Assembly: GCF_030818415.1 (NCBI RefSeq)
Contig: NZ_JAUTAE010000001.1
Location: 4,056,001-4,120,000, forward strand
From: Sphingomonas sp. SORGH_AS_0950
GTDB taxonomy: Bacteria > Pseudomonadota > Alphaproteobacteria > Sphingomonadales > Sphingomonadaceae
Direction: 5' to 3'
DNA length: 64,000 bases
This document shows, one piece after another, positions 9,001 to 41,979 of this stretch; position 1 is the stretch's first letter; every line of letters begins with the position of its first letter. A program made the translations under genes and the position numbers. The notes under the pieces were generated by a model. It was given only the letters and a program-made list of their open reading frames with translations. It had not been told where the DNA came from and searched no databases.

Positions 9001-9131
9001 TGACGTTGCATACGGACGGGAACGACACCCTGACGATGGGCGCGAACGTGGTTCAGAACGGCAACGAATACACCTTCTATAGCGATAGCAGTCACCAGCT
9101 TCAGATCGCATCCTTGACACTTGCGGGATGA
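2..9131 (+). CDS. Giant RTX / cadherin-repeat surface protein (5' partial, one frame break)
   Basis: The reading frame is open at the left edge, so the N-terminus lies outside. Visible order: nonapeptide RTX repeats of GGxGxDxLx type (about nt 14-350 and 770-900), a LamG-like carbohydrate-binding fold (about 1000-1640), more RTX (1690-2090), a DUF642-like beta-sandwich beginning NLLVNGNFE (2130-2580), RTX, a second beta-sandwich (2760-3300), then a long run of cadherin-type domains with DVNEAPVF and DPDAGDTLTY calcium motifs (about 3560-8260), and final RTX repeats (8270-8650) with an uncleaved C-terminal tail. This is the architecture of type I-secreted calcium-binding adhesins, so a role in surface attachment is inferred. 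The frame changes by +1 near 1523, inside the LamG-like domain; sense resumes as YSDNYIGRDWS. No secretion genes are in the window. Confidence 0.85.
4141..6504 (+). repeat. Four tandem 591-bp units within the adhesin gene
   Basis: Units begin at 4141, 4732, 5323 and 5914, each exactly 591 bp (197 codons), starting CCCCGTCGCTGACG. They are nearly identical, differing mostly at scattered single bases. Each encodes two cadherin-type domains. The unit before 4141 and the domains after 6504 are related but clearly diverged, so the array looks recently amplified or homogenised. Copy number could vary by recombination or be miscounted in assembly. Confidence 0.93.
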
Positions 9132-10155: not shown

Positions 10156-10172
10156 TGGTGACCCCTACGGGA
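10156..10172 (+). other. Left attachment site (att repeat)
   Basis: A 17-bp copy of the tRNA-Glu 3' end (TGGTGACCCCTACGGGA) without the rest of the tRNA. This is the displaced copy expected at the far end of a tRNA-integrated element. Confidence 0.85.
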
Positions 10173-10402: not shown

Positions 10403-12511
10403 CTACGCCGGTGTCGAAGACGTGTCGTCCGGCGTTATGCCATGATAAAAAAACTTGAGAACGAATCTGTCGAACGCCGTGAGGCCTTCAACCTTGAGTG
10501 CAGCGTCGAGACCCTTGCTGCGGAAGAGATCCAGCGCGCCCCTGAGGTCGAGATCGGGCTGCGAGAAACTCACGAAGCGTGCTTTGTGCAGCTTACGCGA
10601 GATCATCCGCGGAAGGCCGTACTCCTCCAGATTGTGGACGGCCGGAGGCAAGAACGCATGGCTCACCTTTCCAAGGAAGCCACTGATGTCAACGGAGGGG
10701 TTTACAATCATCTTATGAAGTTCGTTGACGTCACTCAGAAGAGCGGAAAGCTTGAACGTGACCGTCCTCTCGAGCTGGAAGAAGGCTTCGATGTCGATCC
10801 CTTCGACTGACAGTCGCCTGAGCATCGTCGGCATGTCCGTCGTCCAATTCGCAGCAAGAGCCTTGACCACGGCGACCACGCGACTATGGGGAGCGTCCCA
10901 TCCGGAGGGCTTGAGCGCAATCACCTTGTAGAGCATTCGCTCCCACTCGGAGGGATTACTCGAGTTCAAGTAGCCGAAGCCTTTCCAATCCTCGGGGTTG
11001 TCCTTCATGTCACTGGCCGTCTTGAGCAGGAAGTCTGCGTCGCTGTCTTGCAGCAGGTTGTCTCTCTTGATCCGCGCGAGGTTGTCCGCACCAACGATGT
11101 CTAAAAGCTTACGCTTGTACTCGATGATCCTCTCAATCTGGCGCTCGGTCAGGCTTTCGCGGTCTTGGGTCTCGTCGAGGCCTCCTAGAAGCGAATCAGG
11201 AAACTCGATCTGAAGCTGCGTATCCTCCTCCTTCGGCGGCGAATCCAACAGGTAGATGTGGCCTACGAAGTGCTTGAACATTCGACCACCTCGACCGATG
11301 ATGTTCTTGTACGTGAAATCCTTTAGGTTGTTCTGTCCAAGCTTGCTCTTCCAGATAACGACGTTCTGTGCGGATGTGTTGACGCCTTCGATGATCGAAG
11401 ACGTTGAAATGATGCTGTCGAACCCCTTCTCATGCTCGAACAGCAGGACCTGAAGCTGGCTGAGACACCTGTGCATCCGGCCGTTATGGACGCCGACACC
11501 CCGCTCCACGAGGTCGGCCAGAACCCAATCCCGCTGATAGTTGTCTCGAAGCCAACGTGCGAAATGGTTGGTGTGAAGTCGATCGACCTTGTCCAGTCGG
11601 GCCACGACAAGATCGGCGATCCTTCTTATCTCTGCGTAGGTCCCGGCGTAGATGAGCGACTTCTCCTTCCGCGACGAGATGATCGACAGAAGGGCCTCGG
11701 ACTTCCTCTGCGCGTCGCCGTTAATCTCCTTGTAGATCTCGTGCTTTTCGAGGAAGACGGTGTTGAAATCGAGTAGCTCCAGGAACTCCATGTCACGCGT
11801 GAAGACGTTGTCTTGTAGTTTCTTAATGTTTGGAGCCAAGTAGTAGCGCTGTTCAGACCTGCGAGACAGCTGAACGATTGCCTTAATGAGTGACGGGGCC
11901 CGCTCCTTGTCGTGGACGATACTCGCTTTGTAAAACTCGTCGATGACTAGGAGGTCGATCTTTTTTAGCTTTTGAATGTAGCCGAAGGCGCGTTCCTGCG
12001 GAAAGATCAGGATGTTCCGCGCTTCGAGCGGGGCGTCAGGCGCGGTGATGATGCCGTATTGGCGCGCGAACTTCTTGTACAGGCGACGTCGGGTCTCGTC
12101 CATCAACGCGATCGTGGGCACTATGATCACGACGGTGTCCGGTCGCTTCGCCGCGATGAACGCGTCGATAATGAAGCTCTTTCCGAAGCTCGTAGGGGCG
12201 CTCACGGCTATGCTCCTGCCGTCGAGAAGCTTCGACAGGACCGTGGACTGCTCGCGATGCAGCGTGGCGGTCCGGTTGCCGACATCCACCGCGAACGCCT
12301 CATGGACGAACTTCTGATCCCATGACGCAGTCTCAAGCTGCAGATAGGGGAAGAGGCCCGCCGTCCGGATCAGCTGGTTCAGGACCTGAGGGTAGGGGGT
12401 CCTGCTACGGTCCAGATCGCCCAGAAGCCGTATCAGCATGTTTCGCGCGGCGAGGTCGTTACCGCCTTCGATGAGGTCGTTCACTTCTGAACATGCGGCG
12501 AAAACCTCCAT
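10403..12511 (-). CDS. hamB: HamB, Hachiman defence helicase
   Basis: This 702-residue superfamily 2 helicase is the ATPase partner of the nuclease HamA in the Hachiman anti-phage system. Walker A is PTSFGKS (residues 106-112, K111). Motif II is the unusual DEFY (191-194) instead of DEAD/DEAH. Later motifs include STSSIIEGVN (369-378) and the arginine-finger motif IGRGGR (405-410). The C-terminal third is helical without a recognised domain. Its ATG overlaps the stop of hamA by one base (TAATG), so the two are translationally coupled. The family is known to act with HamA on DNA; which phages it would target cannot be read from sequence. Confidence 0.88.
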   Translation of the reverse strand: MEVFAACSEVNDLIEGGNDLAARNMLIRLLGDLDRSRTPYPQVLNQLIRTAGLFPYLQLETASWDQKFVHEAFAVDVGNRTATLHREQSTVLSKLLDGRSIAVSAPTSFGKSFIIDAFIAAKRPDTVVIIVPTIALMDETRRRLYKKFARQYGIITAPDAPLEARNILIFPQERAFGYIQKLKKIDLLVIDEFYKASIVHDKERAPSLIKAIVQLSRRSEQRYYLAPNIKKLQDNVFTRDMEFLELLDFNTVFLEKHEIYKEINGDAQRKSEALLSIISSRKEKSLIYAGTYAEIRRIADLVVARLDKVDRLHTNHFARWLRDNYQRDWVLADLVERGVGVHNGRMHRCLSQLQVLLFEHEKGFDSIISTSSIIEGVNTSAQNVVIWKSKLGQNNLKDFTYKNIIGRGGRMFKHFVGHIYLLDSPPKEEDTQLQIEFPDSLLGGLDETQDRESLTERQIERIIEYKRKLLDIVGADNLARIKRDNLLQDSDADFLLKTASDMKDNPEDWKGFGYLNSSNPSEWERMLYKVIALKPSGWDAPHSRVVAVVKALAANWTTDMPTMLRRLSVEGIDIEAFFQLERTVTFKLSALLSDVNELHKMIVNPSVDISGFLGKVSHAFLPPAVHNLEEYGLPRMISRKLHKARFVSFSQPDLDLRGALDLFRSKGLDAALKVEGLTAFDRFVLKFFYHGITPDDTSSTPA

Positions 12512-13602
12512 TACACCGCTCCCTTGAAGTAGGAAACCGCTCCTAGGAAGGTCTCCACAACCGCCTTCTTATCGGGAACTGGGAAGAGGATCAGATGGAA
12601 GTGGATGTCGCCGTACCTGTGAACCCGTGACGATCCGGATATCTGTTTTGAGAAGTAGGCTTCGGCCCTCTCCCTATGCTGGGCGGATATCGCATTCCGA
12701 TACTCGCTCGAGAGCTGGACGCATTTTGCTGTCTCTGCGCACTGGTGAAGAATAAGAATCGGTACGTGGATTTTTGGCTTCAGATGGTCGATCGAAACCT
12801 GGCTACTAAGTGCCGCCTTGATCTTCATCCGAAGGGGTCCGGATAGCACTAGCCGGTCAAGATCTGACACGTTAGTTATAATGGCGTTTTCTTTTTTTAG
12901 CTTGCCCGTGTCGAGGCTTGCGTAGACTGAATTCACCACTGCATCCAAACGTGCATCGACGATTGAATTATAAAATTTAGCTTCACCGAACCACAGCGTG
13001 AAGTCCTGGCTATCTTCGCTGATAACGATGTGGACGCTATCAGCACCTTTCGCATTATCCTGAACATTCTGCTTGTAGAATATCTTCGGCACGACTGGCA
13101 GCGCTCCGAAGTGATTTTTCATTATTCCGTAGAGGAAAACCTCCGCAATCTCGCTTCCCTGGCCAACCTCGTCCTTGTCGGTGAGTCTGAGATTCCGAGC
13201 AGCAGCCACAAGAGCCGAGTGGCTCTGATCCGCCAAGGCAAGCCTTTCGCGCTCCGAAAGCGCGGTTTGAGCGATGTTATCCCATAGATAGCTTTGGAAA
13301 CGACTACTGCGCCATTTGCCGTCCTCGAAGTCATTTACTAAGCTCAGGAGGCGCTTGTTTATCATAGCCTTCAACTGGACGACATTCGTGATCGTCGACA
13401 GTGAGTCGTCTATAACGGTCTCGAAGGCGATGGCGGTCATCCAGCGGAATACCTCTGACCAGATCGAAGCAAGACAATGAACCGCGTGTCTAAAGGATTG
13501 ATTACCTGCTGCATCAAGATAAGCACCAGCCCCCAATCGCCTGATGTACGGCTCCCAAGAAAAAGAGTGGGTGTCAAGCATGTTAGGTGCGACCACTTGC
13601 AT
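12511..13602 (-). CDS. hamA: HamA, Hachiman nuclease subunit (DUF1837)
   Basis: A 363-residue protein with the DUF1837 core near residues 145-215. Likely PD-(D/E)XK residues are E151 in GSEIAEVFL, D188 in KGADSVH and E207/K209 in FGEAKFY. The size and motif spacing fit HamA, the nuclease effector that partners the downstream helicase. I place the start at ATG 13602; a GTG immediately before it (13605) is equally in frame, and a purine-rich stretch (GAAGAAAGG) lies upstream. A 20-bp inverted repeat lies about 40 bp upstream. Base composition is less GC-rich than the flanking chromosome, consistent with import. The Hachiman assignment rests on the pair, not on this protein alone. Confidence 0.85.
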   Translation of the reverse strand: MQVVAPNMLDTHSFSWEPYIRRLGAGAYLDAAGNQSFRHAVHCLASIWSEVFRWMTAIAFETVIDDSLSTITNVVQLKAMINKRLLSLVNDFEDGKWRSSRFQSYLWDNIAQTALSERERLALADQSHSALVAAARNLRLTDKDEVGQGSEIAEVFLYGIMKNHFGALPVVPKIFYKQNVQDNAKGADSVHIVISEDSQDFTLWFGEAKFYNSIVDARLDAVVNSVYASLDTGKLKKENAIITNVSDLDRLVLSGPLRMKIKAALSSQVSIDHLKPKIHVPILILHQCAETAKCVQLSSEYRNAISAQHRERAEAYFSKQISGSSRVHRYGDIHFHLILFPVPDKKAVVETFLGAVSYFKGAV

Positions 13603-13642
13603 CACCTTTCTTCGTCGATGCCGTTTAAGATTTGTACGGCAG

Positions 13643-15768: not shown

Positions 15769-18700
15769 ATGGACCAGCCACCCAATATCAATCTGCCTCA
15801 GCAGGAGACGCGTCCACCCCGGCTTGAAGGCTGGGACTGGCAGCAGCTCGAACGTCTGACCGAAGCTTTGCTAAACCACGAACCGTACGTGGTGACGGCA
15901 AATCAATATGGCACTCCCGGCCAAACGCAGTTCGGGATCGATACTAAGGCCGATTTAAAGGGCGGGGGCTGCGATGTCGCCTCCTGCAAGGCGTATATCG
16001 AGATCAAGAAGGGCGACCTCGCCAAATGGTCGACGGCCTTCCTCGATCACTGGACGAGCAAGTGGCAGGCCAAGGGCGTCAAGCGCTTCATCCTTACGAC
16101 CACCGCGCCTATCGCGCCCACGCACGTCAGCGATGAGGCCGACACCGAACGCGAAAGGTTTAGCGCGATCGGCGTCGATTATGAACTGTGGGGGCAAACC
16201 CAGCTGATTGAGCGGATGCGGCCGCACCGCGGCATCGTCGCGACCTACCTTGGCACCTTTTGGGTCGACATCATCTGCGGACCTCAGCAGCGCGAGGCGC
16301 TGCAACCGGTCGGATCGTCGGTCGGCACGCAGCCGGTCGGCGCCAGTCAGATCGCCGAATTGCGGGCGCTACTGTCGGGCGAGGCCGAGCAGAAGGTTGC
16401 GCGTGCGCTCGACGACTTACGCGCTGGCGATCTCGGTGCGGTCGAACGCTCGCTCGCCGAACTGCGCGCGGAACCGCTCTGGTCGCAGCTCGATCCCGGC
16501 GCCCAAGCTCGCGTCCTGCGCTTCGCCGCCTCGGCGGCGCTGCATCGCGACGACCTTGACGGCGCTGCCACACTCGATGCCGAAGCGACCGCGATCCAGC
16601 CGGCGGCCGAACCCCGTATCGCCGCGCGGATCGCGATGCAGCGTGAGGGTACCACTGCCGGGCTTGCCGTGCTCGGCACGCCATCGACGCGCGACGGACG
16701 CCAGCTGCAGACGGCTCTCCTGCTATCGAGCGGCGATGTCGATGGGGCGGAAGACGTGCTCGCCATCCTCGCGAGCGACGAGCTCGATCCTGAAACCGTC
16801 CGATTGCAAGCCTGGGCGCTGCTCATGCGCAACAAGCGCGTCGAAGCACTCGCTTTGGTCGAGCAACTCGAACGCGAGGCCGGGCATTGGACCGCGACGA
16901 TCCGCACCGTCGCGATCGCCCGTTATGCTGCGGCCTTGTCTCCGGTCCTTACTCCCGAATGGTTCCTCAACGCGAGTCCGGTCGATTTCGATCTCGTCCG
17001 CGACGACGACGAGGCTCATGACTTGCTGGTGGGAGCCACGCAGGGTTTTCAGTCGCTCGTCGACCGGGTCGGCGACCGCGGCGATCGCCATTGGCTGCTT
17101 GCCGCTCTGTCAAACCAGCTCGACAGGCGCGAGGATGCCGAAGCGCTGGCCCGGACGCTGATCGCCGAGGATGCCAGCGATCCGATGCCGATCGCTTGGT
17201 CGTTGTCGCGTCGCTTCGATGTGGATCTCGCGGAGAGTCGACGCCGCTATACCGATATCTATGCCAAGGGCACGACCGAACAGATCGATGTTCGCATTCA
17301 CGCGCTTCTGCTGGTTTCCGGGGGCGATACCCGGTCGGCGCGGGCCGCCCTCGAGACCCATCTCGACGCGCAGTCCGGCGAGGCGCACACTGAGGCCGAG
17401 ACCTGGATCGCGCGGCTCGCCGCAGACGCAGGCGAGGACGATACGGGCACGCCGGTGCTGGCGACCGATACGTTCGTCGACGATATTCAGGCCGCGCGCG
17501 CCAGCGACGACTGGTCGGGCGTAAAGGCTGGGTTCGACGTCTTGGCGGGAGGTGGGCACCCACAGACGCTTGCCGCTGCACAGTTGATTGCCGCCGAAGG
17601 TCAATGGGCCATCCTGCAGCCGCACCGCGATACGATCCTGGCATTCGCGACCGCTGAGGCGGTGCGGATCGTCGCCTATCTAGTTGCCTCAACGGGCGTT
17701 GAGGGTGAACTCGTCACCTTTGTCGAAGAACATCGTCACGTCTTCCGCAATGGCGCACCACCACCGGACGTGCGGCGCCTCATCGCCGATCAGCAGCAGC
17801 GCGCCGGCGACTTGGTCGGCGCGCTCGAAACTGCGCGGGCGCTCAGCGCCGAATCCGGCGCTGCGGTCGACCGCCACCTCGAAGCCCGACTCCGCGCCAG
17901 CATTGGCGACACCGGGGGTGCCGCGCGGATCGTGCGCGACCTTATGCGGAGCGCCGACCTTGCGCCTGATGCCGCTATGGTCTGGGTCGAGACCTTGCGG
18001 GCCAGCGACATGGCGCTGGCCCGGGAATTATGGCGCTTCGCGGTCGCCCGCGACGGGCAGCGCAATCTTGCCGTCTCGGCCTATATTCAGGCCTTCTCGC
18101 TCGGCCTGGAAAGAGAAGCCGCGCCGTTCCACCTCGACGTTGCGCGCGCGGCAGAAGATGGTACCGGCTCGATCCGCACATTCGATGTTGCCGATCTGCC
18201 CGACTTCATTGCGTCGCAGAATGCCACCGCTGAGGAGCATTGGGCTCTCTATCTCGACGGCCGCATCCCCGCGCATTTGCTTGCCGAGAACCAGAATGTG
18301 ACACTCGACGCGTTGCTGCTCGAGTCACCCAACAGCGAGCGCGGACCACTCAAGTTGCGCCTATGGCGCAATGGCGCACGCCCTCGCCATCTCGATGTTG
18401 GGCTGCCCTGGTCTCGGTGGCGCTTGCACATGGACATCTCGGCGTTGCTCGTCGCCGCGCACGCCGACCTCCTCGATATCGTTGAGCGTCATCCCAACCC
18501 AATACGTATATCGCCTGCGGTGCCCGCGGCGCTAGTCGACATGCATCGGCGTGTTGCGCCGAGTCAGCCAACCCGGCTCGCCCTGTTGCGCCGGCTGACC
18601 GACATGATCGGCAATAGTCTAGCCGAGCGAGCGCGCAGAGATACCGATCGCGTCGTCGCATTGCGCGATACCGACGGCGATCGGGATATGGATTTTGATG

Positions 18701-21700
18701 TGCGGCAGCTGGTCGATGCCGCCTTTGCCGCAGGCGTGATCGACGAGACCATGGCCTTGCAGGCGCGCGCTGCGATGGCGGCACCAGACACAGAATCCCG
18801 CGAAGTGCTCACACCGTTGGTCGCGGGCGAAGGCCTATGGCTCGCGGGCGCGGCCGCGGAGCAACTCCTCGAAATTGATATCCTTCCAGCCCTGTGTCTC
18901 GGTTTCGATATCGCAATCGATCCCGCGGTCGCGCGCGGGATTCGCCAATATGCTGCCGCCGAAGAAGCCAAGGCGACGCGGGCCGCGTTCCTGGATAACT
19001 TGCGCGAGCGCATCCGCCTCGGCATCGAGGCCGGCCGTTACGAACTGATCCGGCGCCATGCCGATCGCGAGATCGACACGCTTAATACCCGCAATCCAAC
19101 AACCCTGTGCCTCATCGACCTGCTCAACGCCGAGGAGATCGACGGGGCCGTATCATGGTATCAGGACCGCAATCTCACCGGCTATCCTGCCAATCGCACG
19201 CATGTCATTGTCGAGCTGCTCGACGTCCTCGACGCGCTCGTTGCCGATGGCGTGCTGAGCGAAGCCGACGCGCGCGCGCGGCTGAGCCGGTTGCTCGGAC
19301 AGGGCGCGGGGCTGAACCAACTCGAAACCGCCGACGTGATCCCGGCGATCCTTGCCGCGCCGGTGGTCGATGGCACGCTGCGCGAAACGCCAGCGCTCCG
19401 CGCGCTGCGCCGCAACCGCGCGGCGCAGCGGCTGATGGACGCGCGGCTGAAGGTCGGGGCAGGCGACGATCCAGACGATCGCCGGCCCGACGAAACCCGC
19501 CTCGTTCTCGCCGACATGAAGCTCGCAGAGGAATGCCTCGCGGCGATTTGGTCGGACCCCGCGCAGACGGCGGAGACCTGCGTCGCGCGGTCCGAATGGG
19601 TGTGGGCGGCCCTGCGGATCGAACGGTCGCTCCGCGCTATCCCCGAGGAGAAGCCTGGTGACTCGGCGAGCATGCTCGCCTCGCTTTGCTTCCAGTCCGC
19701 TGTCGAGACGCTGGCGTTCCCGAGCAACTTGCCGCCGGGTCTGCGCCGAGTACGGCGGCGCACCTTCTCCAATTGGTTCTGGCTGTCAGCCCTTGCGCCC
19801 CATCAGAAGGGCGATCCCGACATCCTCGAACGCATCGCCGATCACATCGAGGAGCTCTATCTGCCGCGGCTGACGGGCCGTGATCCGACCGCCACGCGGC
19901 CCAACCTCGAACTTCGATTGTTCAAGCTGCGCGCAGCGGCCTTGCCGCAGCCGCTGTTGAGCGCGCTCGCAACACGCCCGATCGGCGCCTATCTCGGCCT
20001 GCGCTCTGACGAAGTCGTCACCATTCGTGACAAACGGTTTGAAGCCGATCGCTTTTGGCGCGCGGTGCGGACCGCGAGGTGTTATGGCCCAACCAATGTC
20101 CGCACCCTCGACGGCAAGAAGTGCCGGATCGTGCGCATTGACAGTGGCGTTGCGATCAGCGGCGGGGTCCGCGCCCGGCTCGCCGATACCCTCTGCAGCC
20201 TGTTCGATCCGCAGGTGCGTCCGCTCGATCGCTACGATCAGTTGCTCGCCGAACTCGAACTCACGCCTGCTGAACTTGAGAAATTTGCGGCCGACGGCCG
20301 CGCGGCGCGCACCCCCAATCACTTGATCAGCGCGCTGATTGCGGCACGCAAGCGCAGCGCCAAAGCGGTCTATGTCGACCTCGACGCGGCCTTCCAGTCC
20401 AAACTGCGGATCTCGCTCGGCGCGTTTTTCCCGCCGCCTGCAAGCGCCCTGCTGAACTATCTGCGGCTCGAGCCCGGCGACGCGCCATTCACCGACCGGC
20501 TGCGCGCAGCGGCAGCGCGGCTGGTCGGCGACGTCGGTTCGGTCGTGGCGTTGCGTCGGCTGAGCGGCCTGCCGATCGCGGGTCTGCTCGATCTGTGCGA
20601 CTTGGCGCTCACCCCCGACATCCAGGCTGAGCTCGATCGCGCAGTAACGCCGGTCGCGCTCTATCGGCAGACCGAGATCGCCTTGCCGACAGTTGCGGAC
20701 GCCGCGGCGCGGCAGGCGCTGCTCGGCGCGCTGATCGCGAAGGTTCGCGTCGCAGGGCCGTCTTTCTCCGCCATCCTGCGCTGGACGGTGCGGGCATTTT
20801 GGCAGGATCAGGAGTTCCGAGCGCTGGGCATGGCGGATCGTCTGGTGCTGACCTGGGTCCATGCCAATAGCGTCCTCGACACGTTCCTGCGGTGGCGGGC
20901 CGATCCGTACCTCTTGACCCGCTTTTTCTCCGAAGGGCATTTCGACGAAAATATCGCCGATCGCATCAACATCGAACGCTTCGGTGATCGCGACGCGGCA
21001 TCATCAAGCGCGATGACCGCGGACGCTTTGCTGTTCCACATGCTCGGCGCGCTGATCGGCGATGCACCGGTGGCTGATTTTGTCGATGACGCCGAACTCG
21101 AGAAGCTCGTCGCGGGGTTTAGCGTGGTAGAAATGGGAGAGCCTTTGGCAATACCTGCGCTGATCCTGCGTAACTTTATCGGTCAAAATTTGCTCGGCAG
21201 CTTCCTGACCGCGCATGCCCCGGCGCTCGACGCGCTGATCGGCGATCCAATGGAGAAGCGGGAGAGCCTGGGCTATGACGCGATCCGCGACATCCGGGCC
21301 AATCGCGAGGACGGCCTCGCTTGGTCGATGCTGATGCAGCATTCCAGGACCGGTCTGTCGCCAGAGCAAGAAGCAGTCGTGCAGGACCTAGTACGGACGA
21401 TGGATCTCGACGGACTGACCTTTGGGCCACGCGACGGATTGCTGGTGCCGCGGGCGATGATCCGCACGATCGGGCTGTTGTTGCCGCAGGCCGAGCACGG
21501 TCGCGCGCTCGACGTGATCCGGGCGCTGGCGCGGCAGGCGGCCTTGTCGGGTGTTTCTACGGACCTCACCAATGACACCGAGGAGGGCAGTCCGCTCGAT
21601 CCGGTGCATGAGATACTCGAACTCGCCGCGTGCTACGCCGGGATCGAGGAAGCGGGGGCCTTCGAACGGTTCGAGGCCGGGATAGTCGCCGCGGTCGAGG

Positions 21701-21819
21701 AATGGCCGGCAGCGGTGACGACGTTGCGCCAACTTGTCGACCGGCTGATCCGCAGCAATGGTGTGATCCACGCCGAAGCGCTCTGGCGGCTCTATCTCTA
21801 TCTCAATGCATGCCCTTGA
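15769..21819 (+). CDS. Giant PD-(D/E)XK nuclease / PIN-like helical-repeat protein
   Basis: 2016 residues. Residues 20-135 resemble an Mrr-type restriction endonuclease: QYGTPGQTQFGID then YIEIKKG gives D58, E78 and K80 as likely metal ligands. The rest is almost wholly alpha-helical, with TPR-like A/L-rich pairs (about 200-800). A PIN-like pattern follows: MDISALLVAAHADLLDIVE (D889) and, after a long insert, WYQDRNLTGYP (D1133) then VELLDVLDALVADG. I see no Walker A motif, so it is not an obvious NACHT/STAND ATPase. The start is uncertain: ATG 15769 is preferred because the nuclease fold begins soon after; GTG 15718 would add 17 residues. It ends convergent with another nuclease gene 67 bp away. 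A defence role is inferred from domains and location; I do not recognise the family. Confidence 0.75.
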   Translation: MDQPPNINLPQQETRPPRLEGWDWQQLERLTEALLNHEPYVVTANQYGTPGQTQFGIDTKADLKGGGCDVASCKAYIEIKKGDLAKWSTAFLDHWTSKWQAKGVKRFILTTTAPIAPTHVSDEADTERERFSAIGVDYELWGQTQLIERMRPHRGIVATYLGTFWVDIICGPQQREALQPVGSSVGTQPVGASQIAELRALLSGEAEQKVARALDDLRAGDLGAVERSLAELRAEPLWSQLDPGAQARVLRFAASAALHRDDLDGAATLDAEATAIQPAAEPRIAARIAMQREGTTAGLAVLGTPSTRDGRQLQTALLLSSGDVDGAEDVLAILASDELDPETVRLQAWALLMRNKRVEALALVEQLEREAGHWTATIRTVAIARYAAALSPVLTPEWFLNASPVDFDLVRDDDEAHDLLVGATQGFQSLVDRVGDRGDRHWLLAALSNQLDRREDAEALARTLIAEDASDPMPIAWSLSRRFDVDLAESRRRYTDIYAKGTTEQIDVRIHALLLVSGGDTRSARAALETHLDAQSGEAHTEAETWIARLAADAGEDDTGTPVLATDTFVDDIQAARASDDWSGVKAGFDVLAGGGHPQTLAAAQLIAAEGQWAILQPHRDTILAFATAEAVRIVAYLVASTGVEGELVTFVEEHRHVFRNGAPPPDVRRLIADQQQRAGDLVGALETARALSAESGAAVDRHLEARLRASIGDTGGAARIVRDLMRSADLAPDAAMVWVETLRASDMALARELWRFAVARDGQRNLAVSAYIQAFSLGLEREAAPFHLDVARAAEDGTGSIRTFDVADLPDFIASQNATAEEHWALYLDGRIPAHLLAENQNVTLDALLLESPNSERGPLKLRLWRNGARPRHLDVGLPWSRWRLHMDISALLVAAHADLLDIVERHPNPIRISPAVPAALVDMHRRVAPSQPTRLALLRRLTDMIGNSLAERARRDTDRVVALRDTDGDRDMDFDVRQLVDAAFAAGVIDETMALQARAAMAAPDTESREVLTPLVAGEGLWLAGAAAEQLLEIDILPALCLGFDIAIDPAVARGIRQYAAAEEAKATRAAFLDNLRERIRLGIEAGRYELIRRHADREIDTLNTRNPTTLCLIDLLNAEEIDGAVSWYQDRNLTGYPANRTHVIVELLDVLDALVADGVLSEADARARLSRLLGQGAGLNQLETADVIPAILAAPVVDGTLRETPALRALRRNRAAQRLMDARLKVGAGDDPDDRRPDETRLVLADMKLAEECLAAIWSDPAQTAETCVARSEWVWAALRIERSLRAIPEEKPGDSASMLASLCFQSAVETLAFPSNLPPGLRRVRRRTFSNWFWLSALAPHQKGDPDILERIADHIEELYLPRLTGRDPTATRPNLELRLFKLRAAALPQPLLSALATRPIGAYLGLRSDEVVTIRDKRFEADRFWRAVRTARCYGPTNVRTLDGKKCRIVRIDSGVAISGGVRARLADTLCSLFDPQVRPLDRYDQLLAELELTPAELEKFAADGRAARTPNHLISALIAARKRSAKAVYVDLDAAFQSKLRISLGAFFPPPASALLNYLRLEPGDAPFTDRLRAAAARLVGDVGSVVALRRLSGLPIAGLLDLCDLALTPDIQAELDRAVTPVALYRQTEIALPTVADAAARQALLGALIAKVRVAGPSFSAILRWTVRAFWQDQEFRALGMADRLVLTWVHANSVLDTFLRWRADPYLLTRFFSEGHFDENIADRINIERFGDRDAASSSAMTADALLFHMLGALIGDAPVADFVDDAELEKLVAGFSVVEMGEPLAIPALILRNFIGQNLLGSFLTAHAPALDALIGDPMEKRESLGYDAIRDIRANREDGLAWSMLMQHSRTGLSPEQEAVVQDLVRTMDLDGLTFGPRDGLLVPRAMIRTIGLLLPQAEHGRALDVIRALARQAALSGVSTDLTNDTEEGSPLDPVHEILELAACYAGIEEAGAFERFEAGIVAAVEEWPAAVTTLRQLVDRLIRSNGVIHAEALWRLYLYLNACP

Positions 21820-21886: not shown

Positions 21887-22912
21887 CTATGGACTGAGCG
21901 TGCGGAAAAACTCTTCAAGCTGCGCGTCGATCGCGTTAAACGGCTCTTCGCCATTCTCGCGCATCTCGAGCATCCCGATGAGGTCGGCCGCGGTAAGGAA
22001 AACGATCATCTTCTGCTGCTCAAGCCAGGCCCGGCGCCGTTGAATAATCGCCTGAGGCGCTGGCCCCTCGCGCGACACCAGCAAGCCAAATTGCCGCTTC
22101 GCCGGGATCCAGAGATATTGCTGGATGGACTCGACCTGCTTGGGCCCAATCGGCTCCGTGTAGTTCTTATACTCAGCGACAGCGAAGCGCGTTCCGTACT
22201 CGGCGCGCACCAGCGCCCATGGCGGGCTTCCGCTACGGATCGGGAAAATTGCGTCCATAATGTCTAGGCCATCGTCGCTACGCGTCTGCTGATCTGGTGG
22301 CCCTAGATCAGGTTTGAAGATTTCGCTCAGGATATCAGTCCCCCAATCCTCGAACTTCCTCCAATCGTCCTTGCCTGCCTTGATGGCGTCGAGACGGTCT
22401 TCGAATTGCGCGAAAACCGGGCGCGGGGGTTGGGTCGAGGCCGCTGCCATCATAATCTGGAGCGACTGCGATGCCGCTACGCTCGAGAACGCAGCTTGCG
22501 CAACATCTGGAAAGCGCTGCAGGAGGTGCCTAAGGTCGTCTCCTGTCCATACATCCAGTCCATCCTGCTTCTCTATAGCTTGCCGCGCCCGCGGGGACAG
22601 GTCGCCGGACACGACCAACAGACCCTTGGTATCGGGCGTCTGGATCCTCGCGCGAGCCACGTCGCTGGCAAACTGGTTCACGATCGCACTCGGGATCGGT
22701 CGCCTATAGTTTTTTACTTCGACGATCATGCGTTCGCCGGTGGAGGATACTAGTTCGAAGTCAGGGGCGTTTTGGCCCAGCCGTGCTTGTGCGATTATAG
22801 ACAACCCGGATCGTGAGAGCAGCGCGCCCACGAGAAGCTCGAAATCCTGATAATTGAGTGCGTTGAAGTCGAAGGGCTCGCCACTCGATGCTAGATTCGA
22901 CAATCGCGCCAC
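21887..22912 (-). CDS. Protein with two restriction-endonuclease-like domains
   Basis: 341 residues with two PD-(D/E)XK-type cores. Domain 1 (about 20-130) is Mrr-like, with APDFEL (D51) and VEVKNY (E65, K67), followed by a region ending WTGDDLRHLL. Domain 2 (about 185-325) has DDGLDIMD (D217) and AEYKNY (E247, K249). Both sets of catalytic residues look intact. The start is ATG 22912, with GGAG 8 bp upstream. It points towards the giant nuclease gene, separated by 67 bp. Mrr-family enzymes usually cut modified DNA; the target of this tandem form is unknown. Confidence 0.75.
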   Translation of the reverse strand: MARLSNLASSGEPFDFNALNYQDFELLVGALLSRSGLSIIAQARLGQNAPDFELVSSTGERMIVEVKNYRRPIPSAIVNQFASDVARARIQTPDTKGLLVVSGDLSPRARQAIEKQDGLDVWTGDDLRHLLQRFPDVAQAAFSSVAASQSLQIMMAAASTQPPRPVFAQFEDRLDAIKAGKDDWRKFEDWGTDILSEIFKPDLGPPDQQTRSDDGLDIMDAIFPIRSGSPPWALVRAEYGTRFAVAEYKNYTEPIGPKQVESIQQYLWIPAKRQFGLLVSREGPAPQAIIQRRRAWLEQQKMIVFLTAADLIGMLEMRENGEEPFNAIDAQLEEFFRTLSP

Positions 22913-25789: not shown

Positions 25790-26029
25790 TCAGAGTGCGT
25801 CGGATTTTCCGAAAAGCAGCCGAGCATTGTGAAAAGATGCCTTCCACAAGACGTCCTTTTCGCGCTCGAAAACGGCGCGGATGCGCCGCAGCTTCGACTT
25901 TTCGGCCGCCGCGACTGCTTGTTCGAGTTCGGCGTCAAATGCCTCGTTTGGGAGGGGATTATCGCTGTCGCCCTCGAGGAAGTCGTCGATTAGCCGTAGC
26001 TGCTCGAGTTCAACATCCTGCGGCATCAC
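25790..26029 (-). CDS. Small charged protein coupled to sigma-like gene
   Basis: 79 residues, acidic N-terminal half (LIDDFLEGDSDNPLPNEAFDAELEQ) and basic helical C-terminal half (KSKLRRIRAVFEREKDVLWKA). Its start overlaps the end of the sigma-like gene by four bases, so the two are co-translated. It could bind or regulate that protein, as small anti-sigma partners do, but no known anti-sigma motif is visible. Function unknown. Confidence 0.6.
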   Translation of the reverse strand: MMPQDVELEQLRLIDDFLEGDSDNPLPNEAFDAELEQAVAAAEKSKLRRIRAVFEREKDVLWKASFHNARLLFGKSDAL

Positions 26030-26634
26030 GGTACGCTCCTGTTCGCTGTAGCGTTATTCAACACGCGCTTGAGCTGCCTGCGGCGTGAAGCAAGCTCGGT
26101 CGCATCGATGTCCAACCGCCGCTGAAGCTCGGCACCTTTGGCCCCATCCAGCAACGCGTCGACCAGCGCCATCAGGCGGGGGTCGCGGTCGATCGCCTCG
26201 CGGATCGCAGCGATCGTGCGGCGGTAATATATGGCGTCATGTCCAAGCTGCTCTGGCGAGGGCGCAAGTGAAGCCAGATCAATGCCACCCTCACCGAATG
26301 TGCCGATTAGCACTGGACGGTGGCCGGCCATATCAGCTTCACGCTCAGCGGAGGTCAGGCTGCGCATGATCCCGACGAGGAAGTCGGTGACGTTCCAGCT
26401 ACGCTGGCACTTGCGCCGCCCTTCAAGGGCTCGGACGAAGGCTTCCTGACGTAAATCCGCGGCGAAGATATACCGGTCGCGTGCCAGATAGCGCGACGAA
26501 GCAAGGAGCCGCTGCCTGTCCGAATCGGTGAGCGCGCCCAGCATTACGCCGATCTCGGCCCGCGTATAATGGCTTTCGCCGGCAGGTTCGTCGACGATTG
26601 AGGGGGGAGCGGACGAGATGACGATGCCTCCCAA
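26026..26634 (-). CDS. Sigma-70-like regulator
   Basis: 202 residues resembling a compact ECF-type sigma factor. Residues about 30-100 look like region 2: SDRQRLLASSRYLARD, AADLRQEAFVRALEGRR, FLVGIMRSLTSAEREAD. The C-terminal part (LMALVDALLDGAKGAELQRRLDIDATELASRRRQLKRVL) has helix-turn-helix character in the position of region 4. The start is uncertain: TTG at 26634 is the longest frame and there is no ATG close to the GGGAGG that overlaps it. It may control element genes; no target promoter was identified. Confidence 0.6.
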   Translation of the reverse strand: MGGIVISSAPPSIVDEPAGESHYTRAEIGVMLGALTDSDRQRLLASSRYLARDRYIFAADLRQEAFVRALEGRRKCQRSWNVTDFLVGIMRSLTSAEREADMAGHRPVLIGTFGEGGIDLASLAPSPEQLGHDAIYYRRTIAAIREAIDRDPRLMALVDALLDGAKGAELQRRLDIDATELASRRRQLKRVLNNATANRSVP

Positions 26635-27159
26635 TCATAAAAGCGGACCAGCCGGCATATTCGGACAGAAGGATGAAAAAATTGCTTCGGCTGTCTGAAT
26701 TTTTGAGGTCGTCCGCTTTATGGATTGAAGGATGCTGTTCTCGCTTGTTGGCAGGAATGCCGCAGCAGTCGGCCGGTTTTTTTTCGGGCGAAACTGGCCA
26801 CCATGCCACCTCAAATAATGCATGGTCTCGTCCACGAGTTACGCCCGATAACGTCGTAGCTGCAGTTCAGCGCTTGAGATTGTTAACCCGCTCGGCGTAG
26901 GAGTGCTCTGTTCGCCAGCAGGCGGACCGAGGCGTGACAACCTCGTCGGTAAGTAGCCGTAAGCCCGGCCCGAATTCCATTCGGCCGGGAAGCGGGCGTG
27001 CATGTCCAGGGCTCTCTCGAGGGCCTAAAGACGCTCGCGCCTGTCTTACCGCAGGTTGTCACCTCCCGGCTCATGGGCCGGCACCGCCTCGTTTTTCACA
27101 TGGGGCGGTGCCGCCGGCTGGAATCAGCTTGCCGGCACCGCGCGAACGGGGGTTCGGGC
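26635..27159. other. Intergenic, contains a GC-rich hairpin
   Basis: 525 bp between divergent genes. A hairpin at about 26967-26992 pairs CCCGGCC with GGCCGGG and GAAT with ATTC around a short loop. It has no T run, so it is more likely a regulatory or repeat structure than a terminator. No gene is supportable. Confidence 0.4.
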
Positions 27160-29451
27160 GTGGGTGCAAATTATAGATGCCGCAGCAGGCGGCTTGCCAT
27201 CATCAGGAATTCGACTGCGGCAACGGCGGCGCTGTTGCTCGCCGCATGCGGCGGGGGCGGCAGTGGCGTGAACACACCCGGTGGGAATGCCCCGCCGACC
27301 GGTACGCCTTCGCCAACCCCGGCGGCAACGCCGACGCCATCCCCTACGCCTTCACCAACACCAACGGCTGCCGACACCGCTGAGTACAAAGCATCCACCG
27401 CCGTTGTGAGCGCAAAGGCGGCTTATGCCTATGATCGCGGGATCACCGGCAAGGGCGTGACGATCGCGGTCATCGACAGCGGAATCGCGCGGTCCTTGCC
27501 CGAGTTCGCCGGTCGCATCTCGGCCGACAGCACCGGCTTCGAGCAGCGCATCGCCCGCTGCGCGACCTGTCCCGGCGAGACGGTGCCGCCCTTCGCGATC
27601 GACGACAATGATGGCCACGGCAGCAAGGTCGCCTCGATCGCAGCGGCGGCGCGCAACGGATCCGGCATGCAGGGACTGGCACCCGATGCGATGATCCTTG
27701 CGCTCAAGGTGACGGGGCCTGACCTGGACGGCGTTGCCGCGGGTAGCACGACACCGATCCGCGAGGGCACACAGCCGAACGCGGGTCTGATTGCCCCGGC
27801 GCTGCGCGAGGCCGTCGCCAGGGGCGCGTTCGTCACGGTGATGTCGCTGAACGGTTTTGGGGGTGGACAGGTCGCGACAGAACAGCGGGCGGCGATGGAT
27901 GCATTGCGCGCCGCCGACCGGCTGCTGGTCGAGTCCGTCGCGAACGAGACGGGCAAGGACAGCTTCGCCGGCCAGTTCGCCGAGACGCTCGTCGGCAGCG
28001 ACCGCGCCAACGCCGACTGGTTCCTGTTCGCGATCGGGGTGGACGCGAACGGCAACCCGCGTTCCGCCAATGGCAATGCGGGCGTGCTCGCCGACCGCAT
28101 GATCGCAGCGGTGGGGGTGAACGTGCAGGCGGTCGACAAGGACGGCAGCATCACCACCGTCACCGGCAACAGCTTCGCGGCACCGGCCGTCGGCGGGGCG
28201 GCGGCGCTGCTGAAACAATACTGGCCGCAGCTCGGCGGCAAGGCGATCGCCCGTATTCTGCTCGATACCGCCACCGACATGGGCGCGCCCGGTGTCGATC
28301 CGATCTATGGCGCGGGGCTGCTCAACGTCGAGAAGGCGATGCAGGCGCAAGCACCGGCCTCGTCGTTCGCCGCGGCGCAGGCGGTGCTCGCTCGCTATTC
28401 GTCGCTCGACGTCTCCGCACCGTTCGGTGGGGCGGCGACAGCGTCGATGCTCGCGACGGCGGCAGGCAGCATGACGGTGTTCGACCGCTACGGCCGCAAC
28501 TTCGCGATGACGGGCACGACGGGCATCCGCGCACGCTCGTCGGGACTGCTGGCCAGCGGTATGACCGGGTCGATCGATCCGCTGCCCGTCCGCCGCTGGT
28601 CGGTCAGCGAAGCACGGCTGGGCTTCGCCGGGCAGGACGTGGTCGGCCCGTGGCAGGGCGCGACGGCCAACCGACCGGCGGTGGCGAGCTTCTCGCCCGC
28701 AGCCGGCCAGACGGTGACAATCGGCGCGAACACCGCAGTCGGCGGTGGCTTCTCGCTCACCGACTCCCCACTGCGCGGCGTGGTCGGCCAGCCCATTGGC
28801 CTGTGGTCGTCTTGGAGAGACGGCGGCTGGTCGGCATCGTTCGCCTCAGGCTCGTCGCGCGACCGCAGTGCGGACCTGCGCGGTGTCACCTTCTTCACCC
28901 CGCTTGGCATCGGCCTGGAGGTAACCGACCTCGTCGAACATGGGCGCGTGCTGGGGTTCGGCGGTGGTATGGCCGCATCAGGCTTACGTGGCGGTCGGAC
29001 GACGCTCGCCACCCTCGTCACACGCCGCACCGTAGCGGGTGTCGCGCTGACCGCGCGGGCCACGACGGGTAGAACCAGTGTCGACGGTGGCGGTGACGGC
29101 CCGATCCGTTTCGACGGTCGCATCGTTAGCACCGCCTTCGCAGTAGAGGGCGTGCGTCCACTGCTCGGCGGCCTGGCGACGCTCGGCCTGTCGTCGCCGC
29201 TGCGCGTCGAACGAGCGCGGGCGTCGCTGCTGGTGCCGGTCGCCTATGACCTGATGTCGGGCGTGCTAGCCGAAGAGCGTCGAACCTTCGATCTGTCGCC
29301 GACGGCGCGGGAACTCGATCTCGAGCTCGGCTGGTCGACCGCGCTGGCGCCCACCTCGACGCTGCGGGTCGGCGTCGCGCGGGCCTTCGACGCCGGCCAT
29401 GTTCGCGGCGCGTCCGATGTCGCCGCCTTCTTTAATTTCGTCGTCCGCTGA
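27160..29451 (+). CDS. Subtilisin-type (S8) serine protease lipoprotein
   Basis: 763 residues from GTG 27160, the start that gives a clean lipoprotein signal: basic n-region, hydrophobic stretch, then lipobox LLAAC followed by GGGG and a P/T-rich linker. The S8 catalytic triad is complete: D106 in AVIDSGI, H153 in DGHGS, S338 in GNSFAAP. Residues about 440-763 are rich in alternating polar/hydrophobic beta-like strands and resemble the C-terminal part of autotransporter-type subtilases, so the protein may be surface-exposed or barrel-anchored. It heads a run of same-strand genes for exported proteins. Frames extend upstream to 26998 but lack signal-peptide sense. Confidence 0.85.
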   Translation: MGANYRCRSRRLAIIRNSTAATAALLLAACGGGGSGVNTPGGNAPPTGTPSPTPAATPTPSPTPSPTPTAADTAEYKASTAVVSAKAAYAYDRGITGKGVTIAVIDSGIARSLPEFAGRISADSTGFEQRIARCATCPGETVPPFAIDDNDGHGSKVASIAAAARNGSGMQGLAPDAMILALKVTGPDLDGVAAGSTTPIREGTQPNAGLIAPALREAVARGAFVTVMSLNGFGGGQVATEQRAAMDALRAADRLLVESVANETGKDSFAGQFAETLVGSDRANADWFLFAIGVDANGNPRSANGNAGVLADRMIAAVGVNVQAVDKDGSITTVTGNSFAAPAVGGAAALLKQYWPQLGGKAIARILLDTATDMGAPGVDPIYGAGLLNVEKAMQAQAPASSFAAAQAVLARYSSLDVSAPFGGAATASMLATAAGSMTVFDRYGRNFAMTGTTGIRARSSGLLASGMTGSIDPLPVRRWSVSEARLGFAGQDVVGPWQGATANRPAVASFSPAAGQTVTIGANTAVGGGFSLTDSPLRGVVGQPIGLWSSWRDGGWSASFASGSSRDRSADLRGVTFFTPLGIGLEVTDLVEHGRVLGFGGGMAASGLRGGRTTLATLVTRRTVAGVALTARATTGRTSVDGGGDGPIRFDGRIVSTAFAVEGVRPLLGGLATLGLSSPLRVERARASLLVPVAYDLMSGVLAEERRTFDLSPTARELDLELGWSTALAPTSTLRVGVARAFDAGHVRGASDVAAFFNFVVR

Positions 29452-39991: not shown

Positions 39992-41809
39992 TCATGTCAT
40001 TTTTCGGCCCGTTGCGATCACCGGTTGCCAATCGACCGAAGGGTATTGAATCTTCTCTACGGCGTCGCGGAGTACCGTCATTTCGGCGCCGCGCCCATAC
40101 AGCGTGCTGACGGATCCATCTGCATGGCCGAAGAGCAAATCGACGATTTCTCTCAGAACCTTGCCGCGCACGGCGCGCTTCCCGGTGTGACGAAACGAGT
40201 AGAACACCAGTTCCGGATCGGACAGGCCGATTGCATCGAGGAAATCGTTCAACACGCGCGACAGGCGTTGCGTCCGGCTGCCATAGGCATTGGCTTCGAG
40301 TTCGGGGAACAGCCATTCCGCGCCTTCCGCGCGGCGCGCATTCACCATATCAAGGAAGCCCGCTTCGAGCAGCGTCGAATGCAACGGGATGTCCCGCTTG
40401 GCGCTGGCAGTCTTCATCCGCTTGGCTGGCCCCTCTTGCTCCTGGCGGACGCGCAGACGATCGGGTTCGATGGCAATGTATGGGATGCCATCGTCGGTCT
40501 TGATGTTGCCCGGCCGCAGTTTGCCCAGTTCTTCGAGGCGGCAACCGGTGAATGCGGCGAGCATCAGTACCCAGAACAGCGTTCGCGGCGCTACCCCGTC
40601 ACGTTCAGGCAGAGGAGCGTTGAAGATTCTTGCCATATCCTCCGGCTCGAACGGGAGGCGCGGATCCTGCAAAGAGTTTGTTGGCAAGGATTTCACCGTC
40701 TTGGCAACATTGTCCTCGATGACCTCCATTTCCTCGACTGCGTGTTCGAGGGTCACCCTTATGGCTGAAAGTGCCTTATTGACGGTACCATTCGCTAGCT
40801 TCGGTAATCCCTCAGCTTCGGCTAATTCGACCTGTTCTAACAAGGGGAGCGCGGTAACCTTCTTCTTTGCCCGACTGGGAAGTCCGGAACAGGTGCGGCG
40901 ATAGGCGCGTACCATCGATGCCGTGATCTGATCGACGGGTGGGTCGTCATGAAGCTGGGCGAACCGATTCACGGCGGTTCGCCACTCGTCGACGAGTTTG
41001 GCCTCGCGCGGCTCGAACTTTGCCCAGGCTTCATAGACCTGGGTGATTGTCGGCATCGTCTTGGCTGGCGGCGTCGGCAGCTGTGATTTTTTCGAAGGTG
41101 GGGATAGCGCGGGGAGGACCGCCCCGGAGCCCGTCACAAGGACCGAGGGTGGTAGGATGCGGCTCCGTGCCGGATCGATGCTGAGAGCACAGGCAGCGCA
41201 GAGCCTGTCAAGGTAAGCGCGACCAATTGCCTCGTAGAGTTCGGGCGCCAGCGGCCAGCCCAGGGCGTTGGCGGAGGCTACCGCTGCGATCAACCACTCG
41301 ATTGGATCGAGGGTGGGGAGGGCGGCAACCCGCTGTAGCGTCTCGAGCCAGGGCAGGGGCATGAAGTCGGGCACCGCATTCAACATAACGGTTCGGCTTG
41401 TGTGGTCCCGCAGATCATCAAGGCCCGGCGGCGCGCCGAAGTCGTAGCGTGCACCGGGCGCATGGTCAGTCAGGCCGTTGGCATATTCGAATGCCCCGAG
41501 CTCGAGCGCGGCGAGCTTCTGCGCCGCGCCGCGGAGTTGCTCATCCGATTGTCCGTCGAGAAAATCGTCGACCATCACACGTGCCGAGCGGAGTTGCCGG
41601 CTGGCCAAGGCGCGACGGGCGGCGGCAAGCTTCTGCTCATAGATCACGGCATGCGGATGGTAGCGCTGACGGGCTTCGTCGGGATCGCGGGTATCGAGGG
41701 TGCGCTTGTACTCGCTCGACGCGCCATCGAAGAACGGGCGGAGCGCGGCGGGGACGACCCGTCGAAAGTAGAAAATGCCGGTGCGAGGATCTTTGAAAGG
41801 GGTGGCCAT
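39992..41809 (-). CDS. int: Tyrosine recombinase / integrase
   Basis: 605 residues from ATG 41809 (MATPFKDPRTGIFYFRRVVP, the typical start of this integrase type); a TTG at 41842 would add 11. The catalytic domain is C-terminal: FTGCRLEELGKL holds the first arginine, YSFRHTGKRAVRGK the H-x-x-R pair, and LFGHADGSVSTLYG the final H/W-position residue and tyrosine. It lies 95 bp from the tRNA-Glu 3' end that forms the att site, the standard position for the enzyme that inserted the element. A possible arm-type site overlaps its promoter region, so binding there might also control its expression. Confidence 0.9.
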   Translation of the reverse strand: MATPFKDPRTGIFYFRRVVPAALRPFFDGASSEYKRTLDTRDPDEARQRYHPHAVIYEQKLAAARRALASRQLRSARVMVDDFLDGQSDEQLRGAAQKLAALELGAFEYANGLTDHAPGARYDFGAPPGLDDLRDHTSRTVMLNAVPDFMPLPWLETLQRVAALPTLDPIEWLIAAVASANALGWPLAPELYEAIGRAYLDRLCAACALSIDPARSRILPPSVLVTGSGAVLPALSPPSKKSQLPTPPAKTMPTITQVYEAWAKFEPREAKLVDEWRTAVNRFAQLHDDPPVDQITASMVRAYRRTCSGLPSRAKKKVTALPLLEQVELAEAEGLPKLANGTVNKALSAIRVTLEHAVEEMEVIEDNVAKTVKSLPTNSLQDPRLPFEPEDMARIFNAPLPERDGVAPRTLFWVLMLAAFTGCRLEELGKLRPGNIKTDDGIPYIAIEPDRLRVRQEQEGPAKRMKTASAKRDIPLHSTLLEAGFLDMVNARRAEGAEWLFPELEANAYGSRTQRLSRVLNDFLDAIGLSDPELVFYSFRHTGKRAVRGKVLREIVDLLFGHADGSVSTLYGRGAEMTVLRDAVEKIQYPSVDWQPVIATGRKMT

Positions 41810-41832
41810 ACGGATCACTTTGTACGCATCCT

Positions 41833-41852
41833 TTGTACACAAGGATGGGTAA
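41833..41852 (+). promoter_or_regulatory. Possible integrase arm-type site, right end
   Basis: TTGTACACAAGGATGGGTAA matches the reverse complement of 10224-10243 at 16 of 20 positions. A second TTTGTACGCA lies 16 bp to its left. The site is just upstream of int. Confidence 0.5.
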
Positions 41853-41904: not shown

Positions 41905-41921
41905 TGGTGACCCCTACGGGA
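41905..41921 (+). other. Right attachment site (within tRNA-Glu)
   Basis: TGGTGACCCCTACGGGA, identical to 10156-10172. It begins exactly at the CCA end of the tRNA gene. Confidence 0.85.
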
Positions 41922-41979
41922 ATCGAACCCGTGTTTCAGCCGTGAAAGGGCCGCGTCCTAACCGCTAGACGAAGGGGCC
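41905..41979 (-). tRNA. tRNA-Glu (UUC)
   Basis: 75 nt including an encoded CCA. The acceptor stem GGCCCCT pairs with AGGGGTC, the anticodon loop CTTTCAC carries UUC, and the T arm contains GGTTCGATTC. All four arms fold. The 3' 17 bases double as the attachment site of the element to its left; integration preserves an intact tRNA. Confidence 0.95.

What the first reader, a model, noticed from the sequence alone, without database searches (positions are those of the whole stretch)
15769..21819. 2016-residue protein combining a PD-(D/E)XK nuclease, helical repeats and a PIN-like region
The N-terminus has Mrr-type catalytic residues (D58, E78, K80), and the middle shows a PIN-like pattern (D889; D1133 in WYQDR) split by a large insert. 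There is no ATPase motif. A protein with two different nuclease folds and a long helical scaffold, in a defence island, fits no system I can name.
Basis: partly seen in the sequence, partly recalled or inferred. Interest (0 to 1): 0.78.

Follow-up and report, generated by a model that had tools for sequence, protein, structure and literature searches.

The report
Two-nuclease TPR–PIN defence-type protein
This is one very large bacterial protein, carried on a mobile DNA island, that probably guards the cell against invaders with two nuclease parts; it belongs to a family already predicted on computers, whose function I found no published test of.

Summary
The ORF is real (2016 aa, one copy in its genome). 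It is an outlying "long form" of the TPR–GreA/B-C–PIN conflict system predicted by Kaur et al. 2021 (PMC8195603), a mostly stand-alone gene with swappable N-terminal effectors. D889 and D1133 are invariant in 22 of 22 long forms. The N-terminal PD-(D/E)XK call is right, but the catalytic residues were misread: conserved are D58 and K74 (15 of 15), with Ser72 where Gln/Glu is usual; E78 and K80 occur in none of the other 14. Relatives carry caspase, phosphorylase or Death-like domains in the same N-terminal slot, so the nuclease is best read as the output module. The gene lies on a 31.8-kb island in tRNA-Glu (17-bp att repeats, integrase) with Hachiman; the closest relative's locus shares only this gene. 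GreA/B-C is not established. Structure prediction was never available. Anti-phage activity is inferred.

The parts
15769..21819 (+). the gene: 2016-aa long-form TPR-(GreA/B-C)-PIN protein with an N-terminal REase
15832..16308 (+). residues 22-180: PD-(D/E)XK (Mrr-like) effector; D58, K74 invariant in 15 of 15, Ser72 in the usual Gln/Glu place
   Evidence: same module at the N-terminus of annotated NACHT proteins
16366..18168 (+). residues 200-800: helical (TPR-like) scaffold
   Evidence: TPR_19 in 5 and TPR_14 in 3 of 10 scanned members at E <= 1, none in this protein
18187..18381 (+). residues 807-871: HTH upstream of double PIN (PF24407)
   Evidence: 25.2 bits against cut-off 27; 28.9 bits, over the cut-off, in the genome search; 7 of 10 scanned members, this one included
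18421..18570 (+). residues 885-934: N-terminal half of the PIN domain, D889
   Evidence: D889 in 22 of 22; profile match 888-931, only 9-12% alone
18571..18963 (+). residues 935-1065: insert in the PIN domain; 1024-1056 weakly resembles a second, D-less PIN N-half
   Evidence: absent from 3 of 22 long forms
18964..19356 (+). residues 1066-1196: C-terminal half of the PIN domain, W-x-x-D1133-R1134
   Evidence: profile match 87-90% with the longer query; D1133 and R1134 in 22 of 22
20023..20157 (+). residues 1419-1463: candidate permuted GreA/B-C domain (unproven)
   Evidence: sub-threshold PF24388 matches of three relatives map to 1419-1463, 1419-1438 and 1425-1445; segment 1415-1510 has the lowest Ka/Ks, 0.07; but the model also rings in 3 of 14 control genomes at that level
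20299..21816 (+). residues 1511-2016: C-terminal region without a Pfam match
10156..10172 (+). left att repeat, 17-bp copy of the tRNA-Glu 3' end
41905..41921 (+). right att repeat inside tRNA-Glu (41905-41979, -)
39992..41842 (-). tyrosine integrase of the island
   Evidence: PF00589 and PF20172
10403..12511 (-). Hachiman HamB on the same island (neighbouring system, not part of the protein)
12511..13605 (-). Hachiman HamA on the same island

Best explanation
It is a single-gene invader-response protein of the TPR-GreA/B-C-PIN kind, long form. Shown: the modular layout, a PIN domain related to that system's with two invariant acidic residues, the swappable N-terminal slot, the stand-alone mobile gene. 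Inferred: the C-terminal core (helical scaffold, HTH, split PIN, perhaps a GreA/B-C-like segment) is the sensor and first-line RNase, probably acting on a hijacked transcription or RNA complex; when it is engaged or overwhelmed, the N-terminal PD-(D/E)XK domain is released from autoinhibition and cuts DNA, of the invader or of the host as abortive infection. No NTP hydrolysis is expected, as no NTPase was found. Membership about 0.9; the sensor/effector division of labour about 0.65; RNA polymerase as the trigger (Kaur et al.'s proposal) about 0.3.
For: Pfam at E <= 1, ten members scanned with the window protein among them: PF24407 in 7, PF20698 in 4, PF24388 in 2 (details). Profile of 9 PF20698-bearing proteins (PIN plus about 60 residues) against the 22-row long-form alignment with L032 as master: 189 columns, 96.4%, score 67.1, while the 12 of 15 windows that do not overlap the PIN score at most 18.7; with Pfam's own bounds 52-85%. 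D889 and D1133 in 22 of 22. N-terminal slot among 22 long forms: REase in 15, a caspase in 1 (PF00656, 1.9e-9), phosphorylase in 1 (3.9e-16), Death-like bDLD3 in 2 (L032 4.4e-27; L070 by 50% identity to it), another predicted nuclease type in 2 (L007, L016; likeness to Cap4-type nucleases is recalled), unassigned in 1 (L030). In L032 a separate gene just upstream carries phosphorylase + bDLD3, matching the bDLD3 on the core protein, the effector-adaptor logic of Kaur et al. Same REase module on annotated NACHT proteins. Mobile, stand-alone gene.
Against: Ser72 replaces the usual Gln/Glu of the REase motif in 8 of 15, so DNA cutting may be weak or lost. The second PIN acidic residue is not conserved (by eye). 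PF20698 is below its cut-off in every long form whose score I saw and unseen in this protein. With this protein as master the two half-matches depend on the query: N-half 9-12% with Pfam bounds and 0.1% with the longer query, C-half 87-90% with the longer query and 0.4-0.6% with Pfam bounds. PF24407 misses 3 of 6 genomes known to hold a relative. GreA/B-C is undetected in this protein; PF24388 is over its cut-off in 0 of 16 genomes, and rings at the same low level in 3 of 14 control genomes and elsewhere in the genomes G000 and G801; a profile of the GreA/B-C stretch of the nine proteins has its best match at 738-853, not at 1415-1510. No structure could be predicted. No phage data.
Confidence: 0.66

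Rival explanations
1. One active nuclease only: the PIN core is a catalytically poor RNA- or protein-binding sensor and the N-terminal REase is the sole enzyme.
For: Long-form PIN lacks a conserved second acidic residue and carries an insert whose own PIN-like half has no Asp (by eye); other relatives put quite different enzymes in the N-terminal slot, so the output seems to lie there.
Against: D889, D1133 and R1134 are invariant in 22 of 22 long forms and the equivalent D/D pair is kept, by eye, in 9 of 9 PF20698-bearing proteins, which a dead domain would not need.
Confidence: 0.2
2. The REase of this clade is inactive (Ser72) and serves as a DNA-binding or dimerising part; the PIN RNase is the effector.
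For: Position 72 is S in 8 of 15, Q in 6, D in 1; four REase relatives outside the family that I read, two of them annotated NACHT proteins, all have Q.
Against: D58 and K74 are kept in 15 of 15 and Ka/Ks of the domain is 0.17, like the rest.
Confidence: 0.12
3. It acts in competition between mobile elements (plasmid or island maintenance, exclusion of other plasmids) rather than against phages.
For: Sits on an integrative island; 12 of 21 matching plasmid records match beyond the REase domain; 0 of 50,697 phage records match.
Against: Stands near Hachiman; one relative follows HmaB- and HmaC-like genes and one a gene that looks like a type I restriction subunit by eye. This does not exclude it.
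Confidence: 0.2

Closest known systems
TPR-GreA/B-C-PIN conflict system (Kaur et al. 2021, PMC8195603; Pfam PF20698)
   Same: Variable N-terminal effector including REase, helical scaffold, PIN domain, mostly stand-alone gene
   Different: Published order is TPR, GreA/B-C, PIN; in L062 Pfam places GreA_GreB (weak, 19.3 bits) at 817-888 before PIN at 1001-1139. Here the PIN is interrupted by a span of 131 residues, the GreA/B-C candidate (unproven) follows it, and about 500 further residues end the protein
Pfam PF24407 HTH_upst_double_PIN and PF24388 Permuted_GreAB-C
   Same: PF24407 matches this protein; both match some relatives (PF24388 only below its cut-off)
   Different: 'Double PIN' suggests two PINs; three uninterrupted relatives suggest one PIN with an insert that faintly resembles half a PIN. 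I read no text behind these Pfam entries, only their names
REase-NACHT (STAND NTPase) proteins
   Same: Same N-terminal REase module, 28-30% identity over about 155-178 residues
   Different: No NTPase here
Split PIN of DS-3 (DefensePredictor, PMC13092281; passages seen)
   Different: Split between N and C termini; homology not tested

Membership tests
TPR-GreA/B-C-PIN system | PIN domain of the PF20698 kind | tested here: met
   Met by the family's profile (96.4% with L032 as master; windows control), not by this sequence alone (no PF20698 hit; half-matches depend on the query)
TPR-GreA/B-C-PIN system | GreA/B-C domain | tested here: inconclusive
   Not detected in this protein; sub-threshold PF24388 matches in 3 relatives at the same columns, but the model rings equally in 3 of 14 controls and the own genome's only match lies elsewhere
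TPR-GreA/B-C-PIN system | TPR repeats | tested here: inconclusive
   None in this protein; TPR_19 in 5 of 10 scanned members at E <= 1
TPR-GreA/B-C-PIN system | Swappable N-terminal effector or adaptor domain | tested here: met
   REase, caspase, phosphorylase, bDLD3 in relatives
TPR-GreA/B-C-PIN system | Mostly stand-alone gene | tested here: met
   Only the gene is shared with 20 kb around the closest relative; none of six neighbours recurs in 33 loci
TPR-GreA/B-C-PIN system | Acts against invaders | not testable with these tools
   Prediction only in the section of the paper that I read
PD-(D/E)XK (Mrr-like) nuclease | D ... (D/E/Q)xK active site | tested here: inconclusive
   D58 and K74 in 15 of 15; middle residue is Ser in this protein and 7 others
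STAND NTPase / Avs-like | P-loop NTPase domain | tested here: not met
   No Walker A, no NTPase family
Hachiman | HamA + HamB | tested here: not met
   The protein has no PADLOC match; HamA and HamB are separate neighbours

The most novel reading that the evidence does not exclude
The long form is a separate subtype, not just a member: its sensor has no GreA/B-C in the RNA-polymerase-docking position, its PIN is interrupted by a decayed second PIN half that could act as a built-in gate, and the same core is wired either directly to nucleases, caspases or phosphorylases or, through paired Death-like domains, to a phosphorylase made by a neighbouring gene. The trigger would then not be RNA polymerase, and an NTPase-free large sensor would share effectors with NACHT-type immune proteins.
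Probability: 0.35. Interest if true: 0.62.

Novelty: new member of a known kind. Interest (0 to 1): 0.42.

Why it matters
The family is a predicted immune type for which my searches (open-licence PubMed Central only) showed no experiment. This gene is a clean test case: one gene, no obvious partner, two point-mutable nuclease sites, on a mobile island with a known defence system. It also shows one REase module used by an NTPase-free protein and by NACHT proteins, and the same core coupled to a Death-like adaptor pair.

Tried and rejected
Rejected: a novel unnamed system (it falls in a predicted one); E78/K80 as catalytic (not conserved); recurrent linkage with the Mrr-type neighbour or Hachiman (not seen in 33 loci); STAND NTPase (no P-loop). 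Led nowhere: PDB sequence searches (0 hits for the protein; profiles gave ankyrin designs, magnetosome, carrier and a few other proteins, the best 1.6e-5 for an ankyrin design; judged spurious, not tested further); viral contigs (16 pattern matches, none a relative); phages (0); PADLOC (0 for the protein; for the 10 members scanned one weak DpdH and one weak Csx1); papers naming the Pfam entries (0).

Rows dropped: of 21 plasmid records with a match, 13 were fetched. Left out of core counts: L010 (H8, a 799-aa CDS matching 25-754), the nine hits that cover only the REase end (H13-H21), H9 (twin of H8), H6 (twin of H7) and H11 (not fetched). L033 (1411 aa, G520) matches the core but was left out of the 22-row alignment; so were two short matches (G535, G590; frames of 199 and 229 aa), and L034/L003 (REase only). 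L050 ends shortly after the PIN. In one search, the N-termini of L063 and L065 could not be assigned. Of the two members that match PF24388 I located one only. The PIN N-half query was residues 880-945, although its printed label says 885-934.
Full report
What is there. The ORF at 15769-21819 (+) is intact: 2016 residues and a stop. It is single-copy in its 4.39-Mb genome. Of 296 genomes of its order, 3 match at E <= 0.001: itself, one same-genus genome with a full-length 80% identical copy, and one that matches only at residues 22-178. Between the two full copies Ka/Ks is 0.144 over 2012 codons and 0.07-0.23 in each of eleven segments, so the whole protein is under purifying selection.

Distribution. 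Relatives of similar length are rare and scattered. A core profile (A4) matches 4 of 337 class genomes: itself, G520, and two only by short frames. PF24407 matches 4 of 398 phylum genomes and 2 of 244 genomes of the phylum of a cyanobacterial relative; it misses 3 of 6 genomes that are known to hold a relative, so these are lower bounds. 21 of 72,556 plasmid records match, 12 of them beyond the REase domain; 0 of 50,697 phage records match. A scan of genome contigs gave 7 loci.

Which family. In the protein itself Pfam sees PF24407, HTH upstream of double PIN, at 809-856 (25.2 bits against a cut-off of 27; 28.9 bits and over the cut-off in the genome search, 0 of 14 controls), besides one insignificant match. 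Scanning ten members, the window protein included, gave at E <= 1 PF24407 in 7, PF20698 (PIN of the TPR-GreAB-C-PIN system) in 4, TPR_19 in 5 and PF24388 (permuted GreAB-C) in 2; the PF20698 and PF24388 scores that I saw in long forms are below the curated cut-offs. Kaur et al. 2021 (PMC8195603; passages and section 7 read) describe this system: a constant, fast-evolving region of TPRs, a GreA/B-C domain and a PIN domain, with EAD10 or one of 13 other domains at the N-terminus, mostly stand-alone genes, proposed to act on RNA polymerase hijacked by a virus. A later paper lists 'TPR-GreA/B-PIN systems' (PMC9503650, passages).

The PIN domain. I collected nine proteins of 1100-1459 aa that carry PF20698 over its cut-off (eight from 229 phylum genomes; one from 244 others; sequences). 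Among long forms, 3 of 22 (L031, L032, L070) have an uninterrupted PIN; the other 19, the window protein included, carry an insert, residues 935-1065 here. The nine-protein profile (PIN plus about 60 residues) matches the long-form alignment over 189 columns (96.4%, score 67.1, L032 as master), while the 12 of 15 windows of the same alignment that do not overlap the PIN score at most 18.7; with Pfam's own bounds the probability is 52-85%. With the window protein as master the match splits: 888-931 (9-12% with Pfam bounds, 0.1% with the longer query) and 1067-1196 (87-90% with the longer query, 0.4-0.6% with Pfam bounds). D889, D1133 and R1134 are identical in 22 of 22. Inside the insert, 1024-1056 is the best match of the PIN N-half outside the PIN itself (score 19.3-19.7 against at most 14.6 in 16 other windows), yet only 11-13% in probability, and it lacks the Asp: weak evidence that the insert is a decayed half of a second PIN, which may be what Pfam's 'double PIN' refers to.

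The N-terminal nuclease. In 15 REase-type long forms G51, Q54, G56, D58, V70 and K74 are invariant; position 72 is S in 8, Q in 6, D in 1; E78 and K80 occur in the window protein only. Four REase relatives outside this family that I read (L039-L042, two of them annotated NACHT proteins) have Q at that place. The chemistry is therefore plausible but not assured. Five of the 21 plasmid hits are annotated as NACHT-domain proteins and share only this module (two looked at).

The slot is swappable. Among the 22 long forms the N-terminus is REase in 15, caspase in 1, phosphorylase in 1, bDLD3 Death-like domain in 2, a further predicted nuclease in 2 (L007, L016: no significant Pfam family; L016 matches PADLOC DUF626_VIII at 7.7e-13, L007 nothing; the likeness to Cap4-type nucleases is recalled), unassigned in 1. 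In L032 the gene just upstream is phosphorylase plus bDLD3, the same adaptor as on the core protein. This pattern makes the N-terminal domain the output and the rest the regulator.

GreA/B-C. It is not detected in the window protein. Sub-threshold PF24388 matches in L005, L031 and L032 fall on window columns 1425-1445, 1419-1463 and 1419-1438, and segment 1415-1510 has the lowest Ka/Ks (0.07). Against it: the model is over its cut-off in 0 of 16 genomes, rings at a like level in 3 of 14 control genomes, and in the own genome and in G801 it rings elsewhere than in the gene; a profile of the GreA/B-C stretch of the nine proteins has its best match at 738-853 and none of note at 1415-1510. In the published order, as in L062 (GreA_GreB, 19.3 bits, 817-888; PIN 1001-1139), GreA/B-C precedes the PIN; here the candidate follows it. 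I treat it as unproven.

Surroundings. A 17-bp copy of the tRNA-Glu 3' end lies at 10156-10172, the original at 41905-41921; about 0.001 such exact matches are expected in a uniform random sequence. A tyrosine integrase abuts the tRNA, and a MobA/MobL-like relaxase matches weakly, below cut-off. GC is 55-69% inside, 60-66% to the left and 64-74% to the right, so composition alone does not mark the borders. The island holds Hachiman (HamA, HamB), an IS1182 transposase with a shifted frame by eye, this gene, a protein with an Mrr domain and a second half like candidate defence proteins PDC-M36A, and a DUF1643 gene. None of six neighbours recurs near relatives (33 loci with varying flanks); 20 kb around the closest relative shares only the gene with the window (15787-21806, 78% DNA identity).

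Verdict. A real, mobile, single-gene, two-nuclease protein of a predicted but, in the papers I could search, untested immune type; an outlying long form of it. Membership is well supported by the PIN and the modular layout; the mechanism is inferred; the decisive structural test could not be run.

Noticed in passing
window 10156-41921: 31.8-kb integrative island in tRNA-Glu with 17-bp att repeats, tyrosine integrase and a weakly matching MobA/MobL-like relaxase.
   Followed up: partly
window 21887-22912 (-): 341-aa protein with an Mrr domain (18-131) and a second half (176-338) like PADLOC PDC-M36A; 28 plasmid records match, 3 of them over at least 80% of it.
   Followed up: partly
L032 561-7512: Phosphorylase + bDLD3 gene directly upstream of a core protein that starts with bDLD3: a Death-like adaptor pair.
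   Followed up: partly
L030 25-11088: A long-form gene about 20 bp after HmaC-like and HmaB-like genes.
   Followed up: partly
L016 7409-9037: A PIN_4 protein gene ends about 15 bp before the long-form gene.
   Followed up: no
window 1476-9131 (+): 2551-aa protein with many near-identical cadherin-like repeats and RTX-like glycine-rich repeats (by eye).
   Followed up: no
window 26029-29451: Sigma-70 region 2-like protein (below cut-off) and a subtilase with an autotransporter-like C-terminus by eye.
   Followed up: no
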